From Myxococcales bacterium (GTDB lineage: Bacteria; UBA10199; 2-02-FULL-44-16; JAAZCA01): a DNA stretch of 19,458 nucleotides. Where the stretch lies: positions 1 through 19,458 of the forward strand of contig JAAZCA010000002.1 in the NCBI GenBank assembly GCA_012513515.1, given 5' to 3'. The translations under genes were made by a program, and so were the position numbers. Position 1 is the first letter of the stretch. Every line of letters starts with the position of its first letter. Of the stretch, positions 84 to 4,123 are shown piece after piece. A model generated the notes under the pieces. That model was not told where the DNA came from. It did no database searches and saw only the letters and a list, made by a program, of their open reading frames with translations.

Positions 84-389
84 TTACGGATGCGGGTCCC
101 GCCGCATGGCGGGGAATCCCTGCCCCCCGAGCAGTTCGACTCGCGGCGAGGAGAACTGTAGTGAGCGAGGAGCGCATGCGACGAATTGAAGGTCATATCG
201 TTTTTCAAGTGTAGCAAGTTGAAATGCAACATCCGCTGGAAATCTATCTCGGTTTCTCTTGAAAGCACGATTCAGAGCGCCGGTTTCTACATCGTAAGGC
301 GCTTCCAGATCAGAATCCAACATGACCTTAGATTCTCGAATTAGACAAATACGTTTTTCGATATACTCACGTGGAACCGATGAACTCAT
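84..389 (-). CDS. Truncated ORF6N-domain protein
   Basis: The first about 65 residues match the ORF6N domain (a KilA-N-associated DNA-binding domain of phages and mobile elements). After a short N-terminus one sees VMLDSDLEAPYDVET, then ALNRAFKRNRDRFPADVAFQL, which is the family's LDsDLa.lYgV...l..avkRN..RFP.df.FqL pattern. The start has an AAGAAGG ribosome-binding site about 9 nt upstream. After about residue 68 the protein stops resembling the family: the usual LRSQ...GGRRYLPYAFTEQGVAML segment is missing. It is replaced by a GC-rich reading that runs through a REP-like hairpin at 98-113 and stops at 84. Members are usually much longer (150-300 aa), so this is probably a broken gene. In intact relatives the domain is thought to bind DNA in phage regulation. 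It sits directly downstream of the FGE-fold gene on the same strand. Confidence 0.6.
   Translation of the reverse strand: MSSSVPREYIEKRICLIRESKVMLDSDLEAPYDVETGALNRAFKRNRDRFPADVAFQLATLEKRYDLQFVACAPRSLQFSSPRVELLGGQGFPAMRRDPHP
97..115. repeat. REP-like GC-rich hairpin
   Basis: CCCGCC (98-103), a GCAT loop, then GGCGGG (108-113), within a GGGTCCCGCC...GGGGAATCCC context. It resembles the dispersed tcattcCCGC...GCGGgaatcc palindromes, one of which is also at 5765-5788. It lies inside the 3' end of the ORF6N reading frame, where homology to that family has already been lost. Confidence 0.45.
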
Positions 390-408
390 CGTTCACGCCC
401 TTCTTTAA

Positions 409-425
409 GATGCCAAATTGGCATC
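409..425. promoter_or_regulatory. Perfect palindrome between FGE-fold gene and ORF6N gene
   Basis: GATGCCAA-A-TTGGCATC is a perfect 8-bp inverted repeat with a 1-nt centre. As a hairpin it gives a 7-bp stem with a 3-nt loop. It lies 26 nt past the FGE-fold stop codon and 20 nt before the ORF6N start. It could be an operator for the ORF6N gene, a weak terminator (no proper T-run follows), or the cruciform element that some DGRs carry just beyond the variable region. Confidence 0.5.
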
Positions 426-450
426 TCAAAAAGCCATTACAGTTACATTA

Positions 451-1197
451 CTACTTGGAGTCCTGGGCCGACGAACCACAACGGAACCCAATATTAAAGT
501 TACTGCGGCCGGGATTAACCCTGCTGCGGTAATCAGCCTGCAGGAGCCAGAGTATGCTAATGCCAAAGGAACCGCCGCTAGTATAATAATCGCCCGAAGG
601 ATCAAGTGTCCACTCCCAGACGTTTCCGTTCATATCGCAAATCTCTTTACCGCCGAACTCAATATAACGTCCGGCTGCTTTGCACACCTGACGAGTTGCG
701 CCTGCACCATAATGCACTCCACTGTCGAGTTTGCCGCTTCTTGTAGAATATCGTTTTGCGCCGCCCTGTGAAGCAACATATTCCCATTCAATGGGTGTCA
801 AGAGTCTCTTCCCTTGTGCCTCACAGAATTGTTTTGCTTGGTAACCGTCAACATCTACTTGTGGCTGATTAGGTTTATCAAAATCTTTTGGCGAAACTAA
901 ACTTGGAAGCGCGCTAACCGCTCTTAAAAAATAACCGGCAATTCCTTTTGTCAAATCGGGCCCCCTTGCCGCAATTTTTGCCCATAGTGCTTTAGGGTCT
1001 TTCCCTGACTCAACGACTTCAACTGTACTCCCACTTGGACTAACCGACATCAGCTGATATTGACCTGCTGTTTGAGCGGCAACCCTTGAGGTGTCAGCAT
1101 TTGTAAATTCATGTTGATCTACGCACAAATCAGGAATCGTCTGACCTTTATATCGACCGCCTTTTACGAAGACCATTCCTTCTTGGCAGTTGCCCAT
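451..1197 (-). CDS. FGE/SUMF1-fold protein, candidate DGR variable protein
   Basis: A 248-aa protein of the formylglycine-generating-enzyme (FGE-sulfatase, C-type-lectin-like) fold. Landmarks in order: GMVFVKGGRY (7-16), CVDQHEFTN (25-33), GYQAKQFCEAQGKRLLTP..EWEYVA (118-142), ICDMNGNVWEWT (187-197), SGGSF (207-211) and RSRVNPG..NFNIGFRC (224-240). No signal peptide is seen, so it is probably cytoplasmic or virion-borne rather than a secreted enzyme. The C-terminal 33 residues have the layout of DGR variable regions: GGS, scattered divergent residues, R, NP, then NIGFR. Codons at the divergent sites end in a pyrimidine, as expected from AAY template codons. An AAGGAG ribosome-binding site lies about 7 nt before the ATG. 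If not a DGR target, it is an ordinary SUMF1-domain protein of unknown substrate. True catalytic FGE activity is not supported. Confidence 0.8.
   Translation of the reverse strand: MGNCQEGMVFVKGGRYKGQTIPDLCVDQHEFTNADTSRVAAQTAGQYQLMSVSPSGSTVEVVESGKDPKALWAKIAARGPDLTKGIAGYFLRAVSALPSLVSPKDFDKPNQPQVDVDGYQAKQFCEAQGKRLLTPIEWEYVASQGGAKRYSTRSGKLDSGVHYGAGATRQVCKAAGRYIEFGGKEICDMNGNVWEWTLDPSGDYYTSGGSFGISILWLLQADYRSRVNPGRSNFNIGFRCGSSAQDSK
470..576 (-). other. Candidate DGR variable region (VR)
   Basis: This covers residues 208-242 of the FGE-fold protein. Relative to the usual GGSWNNN..NLR...R NRN NPDNRNNNIGFR pattern, the differing codons are TTT, GGC, ATT, AGC, CTC, CTC, TAC, AGC, GTT, GGC, CGC and TTT. 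All are NNY and each is reachable from AAC or AAT by changing adenines only. The invariant parts (CTGCAGGCTGAT, ATTGGGTTCCG) would be the fixed scaffold and initiation-of-mutagenic-homing side. The template repeat and reverse transcriptase are not in this window. Confidence 0.4.
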
Positions 1198-1381
1198 ATT
1201 AAACTCCTTGTTTTATTTTTGACACGTGAGGCCAATTTTGCTCTCGTGTTGTCGGCTGACATCGGGGAAAATTGCTAACTTTTTGCAGATTTTATTTACT
1301 TTATATATCCGCCACTTATCACGCATTTTCTCTGAGTCAACGTTTATTCGCTTTTTCAAGTCCGCCCAATGCCCCAGTTTT

Positions 1382-1413
1382 CACCTCCTGCATATATCCC
1401 TGCAAAGGAGGTG
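1382..1413 (+). promoter_or_regulatory. SD-sequestering inverted repeat
   Basis: CACCTCCT (1382-1389) is the exact complement of AGGAGGTG (1406-1413). The stem extends by GCA/TGC past an AA bulge, leaving an 8-nt loop. On the plus strand the right arm is the ribosome-binding site of the tail-tube-like gene starting at TTG 1424, so the transcript can fold its own Shine-Dalgarno into a hairpin. By symmetry the minus strand also carries an AGGAGGTG. Confidence 0.5.
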
Positions 1414-1423
1414 TGTCATACCA

Positions 1424-1858
1424 TTGGCAACACCTGCAAACCCCAGAAAGGAGTTCCCGTGGACTGTTGAATTCGAAGGTCTGGAACCTGCGCTTGTCCA
1501 GCGCGTCAAAATTCCGGTCGTGTCGGTAGAGGTAGCCGAACACGGTTCTTCGAATATCCTCATCAAGACCGGAAGCATGGTCAAGGTCTCAGATATCGAG
1601 CTAAACAAAATCATGTTCATGGATAAAAACAAGAACTGGGCCTACGATTGGCTTCGCAAGGTCAGCGATCCCGAGACCGCCAGACTCCCTATCAATATCG
1701 ATCAGCTGAAATCGAAGTGGATCGTAGATATCCGGCGGGCGGCGAAGGATACGGAATGTGCCTTGGATGCGATGATGGAGATCAAGTGTCCGCATTGCAA
1801 AACGATGAATACTAATCCTGTTGTTTGGATTCGATACATTTTATGCTCTATTGCCTGA
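1424..1858 (+). CDS. Phage tail-tube-like protein remnant with altered C-terminus
   Basis: TTG start placed 12 nt after GGAGG; no ATG lies near. Residues 1 to about 105 (FPWTVEFEGLEPALVQRV, VVSVEVAEHG, IKTGSMVKVSDIELNKIM, NWAYDWL, DPETARLP) resemble small tail-tube-type proteins of contractile-tailed phages (T4 gp19-like fold) as I know them from Mu-like prophages. The expected C-terminal strands are absent. Instead the frame ends with MMEIKCPHCKTMN, which looks like the second Cys knuckle of Mu Com-type zinc-finger proteins, followed by an unrelated tail. I read it as a phage remnant, possibly a deletion fusion of two phage genes. It is the only plus-strand gene in this half of the window. 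The family call is by eye; whether it is still expressed is unknown. Confidence 0.5.
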   Translation: MATPANPRKEFPWTVEFEGLEPALVQRVKIPVVSVEVAEHGSSNILIKTGSMVKVSDIELNKIMFMDKNKNWAYDWLRKVSDPETARLPINIDQLKSKWIVDIRRAAKDTECALDAMMEIKCPHCKTMNTNPVVWIRYILCSIA

Positions 1859-2251: not shown

Positions 2252-4123
2252 TCAGCGCCTCCTTCTCCATCTGGCGGCAGCCAGTGGGGAGAGGAAAAGC
2301 CCGGCAAGGAGGATCTGCGCAGCAAATCCCGCAGCAGGGATGGACGCAGAAACTACGCAACCACACCCGCCTCCGCCTTGCACCGAATCCTTCCCCATGC
2401 CATCCGTGCCATCACCATCAGCTATACTGCTGTCTGCATCGCCGCTACCATTACCATCGCCATCCGGGGAAACTGAATGATCTGTCTCCTTTTCAATTTT
2501 GCACGCCGATGAACAGCCATCCCCGTCATCGAGATTTCCATCATCGCACTCTTCCAGCCCGACCGCTACAAAACCATCGCCGCAGGTGGCAAGCGCGCAG
2601 GTAGAGAGGCAATCATCGGAATTATCAGCATTGCCGTCGTCGCACTCCTCGCCATCGTCCATGACGCCATCTCCGCAGGAGGGATTCATGCAGGTAGTAC
2701 GGCAGGCATTGGGATCATCGTCGCTGTTCAGAATGCCATCATCGCATTCCTCACCATCATCCTTGATGCCATCGCCACAGGTGGGGAGGGAGCAATCGTT
2801 TCTGCAGCCGTCCATATCATCCATATTCCCGTCATCGCAGCCCTCGCCGGCATCAACTACGCCGTCGCCGCAGATTGGATTTACGCAGGTCGTTCGGCAG
2901 GAATTGGGATTATCGTCGCTGTTCAATTCCCCCTCGTCGCATTCCTCAACGCCGACCTGGACCACGCCATCGCCGCAGGTGGCAAGCTTACACGTATTGA
3001 GGCAGCCGTCCGTATTGTCCGTATTCCCGTCATCGCACTCTTCGCCGGTGTCAACAACACCATCGCCGCAGAAGGCAAAACGACAGTTCGTGCGGCAAGC
3101 ATCTGGAAGTGTATCGCTGTTCAGAACGCCAAAATCACACTCTTCAACTCCGTTATATACGAAGCCATCACCGCATGAGGCCTCAACGCAGGTGGAGAGG
3201 CATGAGTCGGTGTTGTCGTCGTTTCCGTCATCGCACTGTTCCGGATACTCCTCAGTGGGCTCGAGCACGCCATCGCCGCAGGTGGGGAAGGAACAATCGT
3301 TTCTGCAACCATCTGAATCATTGCTATTGCCATCGTCACAGGCTTCGAAAGAATCGACAACGCCGTCACCGCAGACAGGCAATGTACAATTCGTACGGCA
3401 TGAATCAGGATCCGTATCGCTGTTGAAGAAGCCGGAATCGCATTCCTCGCCATCGGTGATGACGCCGTTGCCACATCTCGTGAATGTACAGTTGGCATCG
3501 CAACCATCGCCGCTTATGAGGTTGCCGTCATCACACTCCTCGTCATCGTCCAAATTGCCATCACCGCAGGACTCGTGCATGCAGGAGCTATCGCAGCCAT
3601 CGAGGTCTTCAAGATTTCCATCATCGCACTGCTCGTCCCCCTCTTTCACACCATCGCCGCACTCGTAGGCCAGCTTGCTGCTGAGCCCTATCTTCAGCGG
3701 CCTCGTACGCCACGAGAACAACGCATTATGCGGAATTTCCAAAACGGCTGTCTTGTCCGAGCCCCGGCTCTGAGGAGAAAAAACCACTTCTATCGTGCAC
3801 GAGCGAAGCTGAAAAACCCCTAGCGAAAAACTTTTCTCTGAACACTGATCGGAGGAAATAGTAAAATCCTCTGCATCAGGCCCCGTGATCGTAGCTTTGC
3901 CAGTGTCGATGTCGCCGGACACGAGCCCAAAGAAGTACACCTTACCCTTCCTCGCGGCACTGACAGATCCCACCTTGGTACCTGAGAAGACCAAGTTCTC
4001 ACGATTGTGAGGAACGAAGGCCACATTTAAGCCGCTCGCATCTGCAGTCTCTGCAAATACCAGCGAGATTGAAAACACCAATGCAAAAAAGACAGCGACC
4101 AGGGTTCTTCTTCTCGTAAACAT
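2252..4123 (-). CDS. Cell-surface Cys-rich (DUF4215-type) repeat protein with MYXO-CTERM-like sorting tail
   Basis: A 623-aa exported protein. Residues 1-24 form a Sec signal (MFTRRR then a hydrophobic run, likely cleaved after VFA). Residues about 32-150 resemble a choice-of-anchor-D / ASPM-SPD-2-Hydin-type beta domain ([23 protein letters not shown]). Residues 154-541 hold twelve tandem modules of about 30-35 aa with the pattern CGDG...EECDDGN...DGC...C, acidic and calcium-binding in look. A Gly/Asp/Ser linker follows. The tail is GGGGCGC (C587, C589), a hydrophobic segment (about 594-615) and an RWRRRR end, the tripartite layout of MYXO-CTERM signals processed by myxosortase. The expected result is a surface-anchored, disulfide-rich protein; function unknown. 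The ATG sits only 1 nt after AAAGGAG, unusually close, with an in-frame TAA just upstream and no better start. Confidence 0.85.
2501..3664 (-). repeat. Twelve tandem Cys-rich coding repeats
   Basis: Coding repeats of roughly 93-105 bp encoding CGDG-x-EECDDGN-x-DGC-x-C modules. Two module types partly alternate: a short one with DDGN...DGC, and a longer one with NSD..P..CRT.C (modules 3, 6, 8, 10). This suggests that pairs of modules were duplicated together. The region keeps long shadow frames open on the other strand. Confidence 0.85.

What the first reader, a model, noticed from the sequence alone, without database searches (positions are those of the whole stretch)
470..576. Possible diversity-generating retroelement target: C-terminus of an FGE-fold protein with NNY-only divergence
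The last 33 residues of the 248-aa FGE-fold protein keep the scaffold GGS...QAD.R.R.NP....N.NIGFR. The divergent positions carry codons TTT, GGC, ATT, AGC, CTC, TAC, GTT, CGC and so on, all NNY and all reachable from AAC/AAT by adenine change alone. That is the signature of adenine-mutagenised DGR variable regions, and FGE/C-lectin folds are the classic DGR targets. Neighbouring genes look phage-derived. No template repeat or reverse transcriptase is within the window.
Basis: partly seen in the sequence, partly recalled or inferred. Interest (0 to 1): 0.75.

Follow-up and report, generated by a model that had tools for sequence, protein, structure and literature searches.

The report
Orphan target of a hypermutating retroelement
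The gene is a real target of a targeted-hypermutation system (a diversity-generating retroelement) whose enzyme and template are absent from this genome assembly, and related bacteria carry the same system with a stuttering four-base DNA repeat inside the enzyme gene that looks like an on/off switch.

Summary
The C-terminus of the 248-aa FGE-fold protein (window 454-1197, minus strand) is a genuine diversity-generating retroelement (DGR) variable region. Besides a pyrimidine-ending codon bias, it carries the lineage's homing site: GCCCAGGACTCC at window 457-468, with a hairpin at 408-426. In the window's phylum (46 genomes held), nine encode one DGR family. Its variable regions end in CAG-GAC and its templates in CAG-CAC, and five intact template/variable pairs differ essentially only at template adenines. 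The window's own assembly (1.79 Mb, 99.3% complete) has no matching reverse transcriptase (RT), template or Avd. The contig that overlaps the window's left edge by 75 bp puts a tRNA-Gln about 0.5 kb from the target gene, leaving no room for a cassette. So this is an orphan (or trans-served) target, as described for Treponema denticola.

Unexpected: in relatives, most RT genes of this family carry a tetranucleotide repeat exactly before motif B, with different units in different genomes. It puts the two RT halves out of frame in six of seven measurable cases. It was absent from 80 viral DGR RTs. The half after the repeat is under purifying selection and the variable regions look recently mutagenised. 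Phase variation of a DGR RT is therefore likely but unproven.

The parts
454..1197 (-). FGE-fold (C-type-lectin superfold) target gene, 248 aa
   Evidence: PF03781 E 2.9e-16; single copy in the genome; best homologue in the phylum is G023:C36, 44% identity, followed by a degraded Avd/RT
493..567 (-). core of the variable region, codons 211-235
   Evidence: 20/25 NNY codons; third-base A nearly absent in codons 208-242; aligns with variable regions of DGR targets in the phylum
457..468 (-). initiation-of-mutagenic-homing-type site GCCCAGGACTCC, the variable-region form (G, not C, at the mark)
   Evidence: same site at the ends of the phylum's variable regions, with templates carrying CAGCAC; 1 of 243 GFR-like motifs in other-phylum homologue loci has anything similar
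408..426 (-). hairpin AGATGCCAATTTGGCATCT about 33 nt past the homing site
   Evidence: 8-bp stem; variable regions of relatives carry 7-15 bp hairpins at +34 to +75; stems of 8 bp or more occur in about 3% of random 130-mers
84..389 (-). ORF6N (KilA-like, phage antirepressor type) gene fragment lying where relatives have Avd and RT
   Evidence: PF10543 E 3e-15 over residues 13-71 only; phrog_4792 anti-repressor
114..127 (.). 14-bp copy of the 3' end of the neighbouring tRNA-Gln, possible integration scar
   Evidence: exact 14-bp repeat between tRNA-Gln (C3) and the window in the joined contig ends
1..75 (.). exact overlap with the end of contig C3 (73,903 bp), i.e. the inferred left neighbour

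Best explanation
The gene is a DGR target. Its variable C-terminus was written by mutagenic retrohoming: an RT-Avd complex copied a template RNA with random substitutions at adenines, and the cDNA replaced the variable region, with the GCCCAGGACTCC site and downstream hairpin marking the recipient. In the sequenced genome the cassette (Avd, RT, template) is not present, so the target is now an orphan, or depends on a cassette outside the assembly. Shown: target family, homing site, hairpin, codon signature, absence of the cassette from the assembly, complete cassettes of the same family in relatives. Inferred: past mutagenesis of this particular gene, and loss rather than non-assembly of the cassette. 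In relatives the same system probably has a phase-variable RT: a tetranucleotide repeat just before RT motif B, whose slippage would switch the RT frame and so switch target diversification on and off (inferred).
For: Homing site shared with the phylum's variable regions and set apart from templates by one base. Hairpin in the same place. Third-base bias confined to the C-terminus. Best homologue sits about 400 bp upstream of an RT remnant. Template/variable pairs in relatives, mismatches at template A: 15/16, 19/19, 16/16, 20/20, 21/21, and 22/25 in one pair whose alignment runs past the homing site. No RT, Avd or template in the assembly; the same profile and the template-tail pattern do ring in 9 and 8 of the 46 genomes. 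Left neighbour inferred from a 75-bp overlap. RT repeat.
Against: No template exists to prove the A-only pattern for this gene itself. No population reads were available. Contigs shorter than about 2 kb are absent from this assembly (smallest 2,029 bp), so a short cassette fragment could have been lost. The join to contig C3 rests on a 75-bp overlap, not on spanning reads.
Confidence: 0.9

Rival explanations
1. The target is live: the Avd-RT-template cassette exists in the organism but was lost from the assembly (short unbinned contig or strain heterogeneity) and works on this gene in trans.
For: Smallest contig is 2,029 bp, so shorter pieces are missing. In G036 the RT is broken between two contigs exactly at its repeat. 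Targets far from any cassette exist in relatives (G036:C118). The window's reading frame, homing site and hairpin are all intact.
Against: Assembly 99.3% complete; no trace of RT, Avd-RT or template tail in 1.79 Mb. Two other genomes with variable regions (G017, G035) also lack RT and template tail, so loss is common.
Confidence: 0.3
2. Ordinary FGE-domain gene that never had a DGR; the C-terminal pattern is simply FGE-family conservation plus codon bias.
For: GGS...GFR is conserved in FGE proteins generally; the NNY bias alone is only moderately significant.
Against: The 12-bp homing site with the variable-region mark, the hairpin in place, and 1/243 in the control; the nearest homologue lies beside an RT remnant.
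Confidence: 0.04
3. In relatives, the repeat-split RT genes are decaying pseudogenes or use ribosomal frameshifting, not phase variation.
For: Only one of seven measurable repeat-bearing RTs is in frame, and that one looks N-terminally truncated. G023 copies carry deletions. An in-frame relative without a repeat exists (G045).
Against: Five RTs are otherwise intact on both sides of the repeat. The downstream half is under purifying selection (mismatch 0.31/0.17/0.58 by codon position). The variable regions differ from their templates essentially only at A, which implies recent activity. The repeat sits at the same site with five or more different units and occurs nowhere else in 274 kb. No common slippery sequence is shared by the units (my reading).
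Confidence: 0.35

Closest known systems
Treponema denticola DGR (TvpA-type FGE-sulfatase targets, remote targets, and target genes in isolates lacking a complete DGR; PMC4891356)
   Same: FGE-fold target with C-terminal variable region, IMH/IMH* pair differing at a few positions, remote targets, and target genes interpreted as remnants where the core DGR is incomplete
   Different: Different homing-site sequence and cassette. The phylum here has RT genes interrupted by tetranucleotide repeats; the T. denticola paper text has no 'frameshift'
Bordetella phage BPP-1 DGR (Mtd; described in PMC6642488, PMC8867640)
   Same: C-type-lectin-fold target, TR/VR/RT/Avd, IMH at the end of VR with a modified copy at the end of TR, stem-loop features flanking IMH
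   Different: Here the mark between recipient and donor is essentially one base (GGAC versus GCAC); FGE-type target in a bacterial chromosome; cassette missing in this genome
Tetranucleotide-repeat contingency loci (slipped-strand phase variation of surface and modification genes in pathogens; general knowledge)
   Same: Repeat unit of 4 bp inside an otherwise intact ORF, so that copy-number change shifts the frame
   Different: The gene carrying the repeat here is an RT that drives targeted mutagenesis; no switching has been observed yet

Membership tests
DGR target gene (variable region recipient) | C-type-lectin/FGE fold target with C-terminal variable region | tested here: met
   PF03781; alignment with DGR targets of the phylum
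DGR target gene (variable region recipient) | IMH-type homing site at the 3' end of the variable region | tested here: met
   GCCCAGGACTCC, the variable-region form
DGR target gene (variable region recipient) | stem-loop downstream of the homing site | tested here: met
   hairpin at 408-426
DGR target gene (variable region recipient) | differences from a template confined to template adenines | not testable with these tools
   no template in this genome; met in five relatives' pairs
complete DGR at this locus | DGR-type reverse transcriptase | tested here: not met
   none in the whole assembly by PF00078, lineage profile or lineage protein
complete DGR at this locus | template repeat | tested here: not met
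   no copy of the variable region and no template-tail pattern in the assembly
complete DGR at this locus | Avd accessory protein | tested here: not met
   12 four-helix-bundle (PF05635) proteins exist, but none of those checked resembles the lineage Avd and none lies by the target
phase-variable gene (RT genes of relatives) | simple repeat of non-triplet unit inside an otherwise intact ORF | tested here: met
   period 4 or 8 repeats in 8 of 11 RT matches; both sides open in five RTs
phase-variable gene (RT genes of relatives) | observed reversible copy-number change within a population | not testable with these tools
   no reads or strain series; only a contig break at the repeat in G036

The most novel reading that the evidence does not exclude
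DGRs of this phylum are phase-variable contingency systems: slippage of a tetranucleotide repeat just before RT motif B turns a targeted mutator on and off, so target diversification is confined to rare 'on' cells. The window's orphan gene is what remains after the cassette is lost.
Probability: 0.55. Interest if true: 0.78.

Novelty: new variant of a known kind. Interest (0 to 1): 0.6.

Why it matters
How DGR activity is regulated is, to my knowledge, largely open. A four-base repeat in the RT gene would be a simple genetic switch placed on a mutator: 'off' most of the time, with occasional 'on' cells that diversify the target and then switch off, preserving a good variant. It can be tested by counting repeat lengths in reads. 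The orphan target shows the endpoint, a frozen variable gene that keeps its homing site and hairpin after the mutator is gone, and gives three genomes (G000, G017, G035) in which to study decay after loss. The window's gene taken alone is only a new member of a known kind; the 'new variant' rating rests on the repeat-split RTs of its relatives.

Tried and rejected
Looking for the RT at contig ends via four-helix-bundle genes of G000: those fetched are unrelated to the lineage Avd. AlphaFold model of the target from 11 sequences: mean pLDDT 57 with the variable region near 30, too poor to use, so no fold search was run. Reading the NNY bias as sufficient proof: rejected, because FGE composition contributes; the homing site carries the argument. 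Close viral relatives of the target: only distant FGE homologues. Treating ORF6N as part of the DGR: no sign of this; it looks like a fragment. Chance origin of the RT repeat: rejected by 0/80 viral controls and by no other repeat of 4 or more tetranucleotide copies in 274 kb. Tandem repeats in the window itself: none of the tetranucleotide kind.

Full report
What is there. Window 451-1197 (minus) encodes a 248-aa protein with an FGE-sulfatase domain (PF03781, E 2.9e-16). Its last part reads GGSFGISILWLLQADYRSRVNPGRSNFNIGFRCGSSAQDSK. Third codon positions in codons 208-242 are pyrimidine in 28/35 against 103/207 elsewhere, and A in 1/35 against 66/207 (Fisher p = 6e-4 and 7e-5).

The window's genome. 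The window is the whole contig G000:C2. The assembly has 1,786,840 bases in 42 contigs and is 99.3% complete. No RVT_1 match, no second copy of the target or of the variable region, no match to a lineage RT profile, no match to a lineage Avd-RT protein, no template-end pattern and no template-tail pattern were found. The first 75 bases of the window equal the last 75 bases of contig C3, and that stretch occurs nowhere else in the assembly. Other contig ends in this assembly often share exactly 127 bases. I read that as the assembler's k-mer length, and the shorter unique 75-base overlap as a coverage dip rather than a repeat. Joined this way, the target gene is followed by an ORF6N fragment, a 14-bp copy of a tRNA 3' end, and tRNA-Gln, all within about 0.5 kb. 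The last 7.4 kb of C3 listed are ordinary chromosomal genes, and no RT match lies anywhere on that contig. A DGR cassette therefore does not fit beside the target, provided the join is real.

The DGR family of the phylum. The phylum held (46 genomes, the same set as the class) contains one DGR RT family in nine genomes. A template/variable scan found six pairs. Mismatches at template adenines were 15/16, 19/19, 16/16, 20/20, 21/21, and 22/25 for one pair whose alignment runs past the homing site. The order, read out in G001, is target, Avd-like gene, RT, template. The targets are FGE-fold proteins, many ending in QDSK-like tails. At DNA level the variable regions end in CCAGGAC and the templates in CCAGCAC. 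The window ends GCCCAGGACTCC, the recipient form. In homologue loci of other phyla only 1 of 243 GFR-like motifs is followed by anything within one mismatch of this site. Downstream of the variable regions a hairpin of 7-15 bp usually sits at +34 to +75; the window has an 8-bp one at +33 to +51. The closest homologue of the window's gene, G023:C36 (44% identity), stands directly before a shortened Avd/RT remnant. These points together place the window's gene in the DGR family as a recipient, independently of the codon bias.

State of the system in G000. The recipient is intact in frame, homing site and hairpin, but the cassette is not in the assembly. G017 (two recipients) and G035 (one recipient, which by my reading has a one-base deletion) are similar: they hold recipients but no matching RT or template tail. 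Target genes left behind in genomes without a complete DGR have been described in Treponema denticola (PMC4891356). The best reading is an orphan target; a cassette on an unbinned short contig remains possible, since the smallest contig is 2,029 bp.

An unexpected feature of the family. In the RT genes of relatives, the segment just before motif B (GIPIGNLTSQFFAN) carries a simple repeat: (CAGC)9.5 in G001, (CAGC)10.5 in G021, (CATCACTC)4.6 in G005, (TCAC)8 and (CAAT)12 in two loci of G043, (CATC)8.5 in G023:C36, (CAGA)4 in G030, and (CAGC)5 at a contig end in G036. That is 8 of 11 RT matches; the others are a degraded repeat (G024), a deletion copy (G023:C70) and a repeat-free outgroup-like RT that is open throughout (G045). 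The distance from motif A to motif B is out of frame in six of the seven repeat-bearing copies that could be measured, and also in G024. Five RTs are otherwise open on both sides. Among 80 viral DGR RTs found with the same profile, none has such a repeat and 79 of 80 are open for at least 150 aa upstream; the other is cut by the locus edge. In 274 kb of phylum DNA every tetranucleotide repeat of four or more copies lies in these RT genes. In G036 the two halves of the RT lie on two contigs that break at the repeat. The half after the repeat is conserved as protein (mismatch by codon position 0.31/0.17/0.58).

Mechanism. Variable regions that differ from their templates essentially only at adenines need a working RT in the recent past, while the assembled RTs are out of frame only at the repeat. 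Reversible slippage explains both. Decay would not predict a conserved downstream half or a repeat at the same site with different units. Ribosomal frameshifting is possible, but the units share no obvious slippery sequence. I put phase variation at about 0.55. It is not shown in G000, which has no RT.

Literature. Searches of the open-access library for DGR together with phase variation, tetranucleotide repeats, slipped-strand terms or 'slipped' returned no paper that describes a repeat-switched DGR RT (judged from titles, abstracts and counts). A survey of DGRs in the global microbiome mentions neither phase variation nor frameshift. Absence from this library is weak evidence of novelty.

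Limits. No reads were available. The structure model was too poor to use.

Noticed in passing
G001 L131:7756-7790; G005 L132; G021 L133:803-842; G023 L129:5645-5676; G043 L137:1565-1596 and L138:5086-5133; G036 L136:7107-7126; G030 L175: Tetranucleotide (or 8-bp) repeats directly before RT motif B in the phylum's DGR RT genes, mostly out of frame; candidate phase-variation switch.
   Followed up: partly
G029:C10:107856 (L346) and G036:C42:8464 (L348): Template-type tails (CAGCACTCC plus the conserved GGGAGTCCAGA...CCTGGT motif) attached to sequences that already look adenine-mutagenised, as if a template had itself been overwritten or copied into a target.
   Followed up: no
downstream of templates in L342-L352: Conserved motif GGGAGTCCAGA-N8-CCTGGT about 80-100 nt past the template homing site in 8 of 46 genomes, zero control matches; probably part of the structured template RNA.
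   Followed up: partly
G000:C14:17858-18587, C30:23713-24442, C9:84489-85219: Four-helix-bundle (PF05635) genes in divergent pairs, 12 copies in the genome, unrelated to the lineage Avd.
   Followed up: no
window 2252-4123 (-): 623-aa protein with DUF4215 repeats (7 matched stretches), a cysteine-rich surface-type protein beside the DGR target.
   Followed up: no
window 1226-1858 (+): Weak match to T4 gp19 tail-tube (PF06841, 24.6 bits, below cut-off) next to the target gene, divergently oriented.
   Followed up: no
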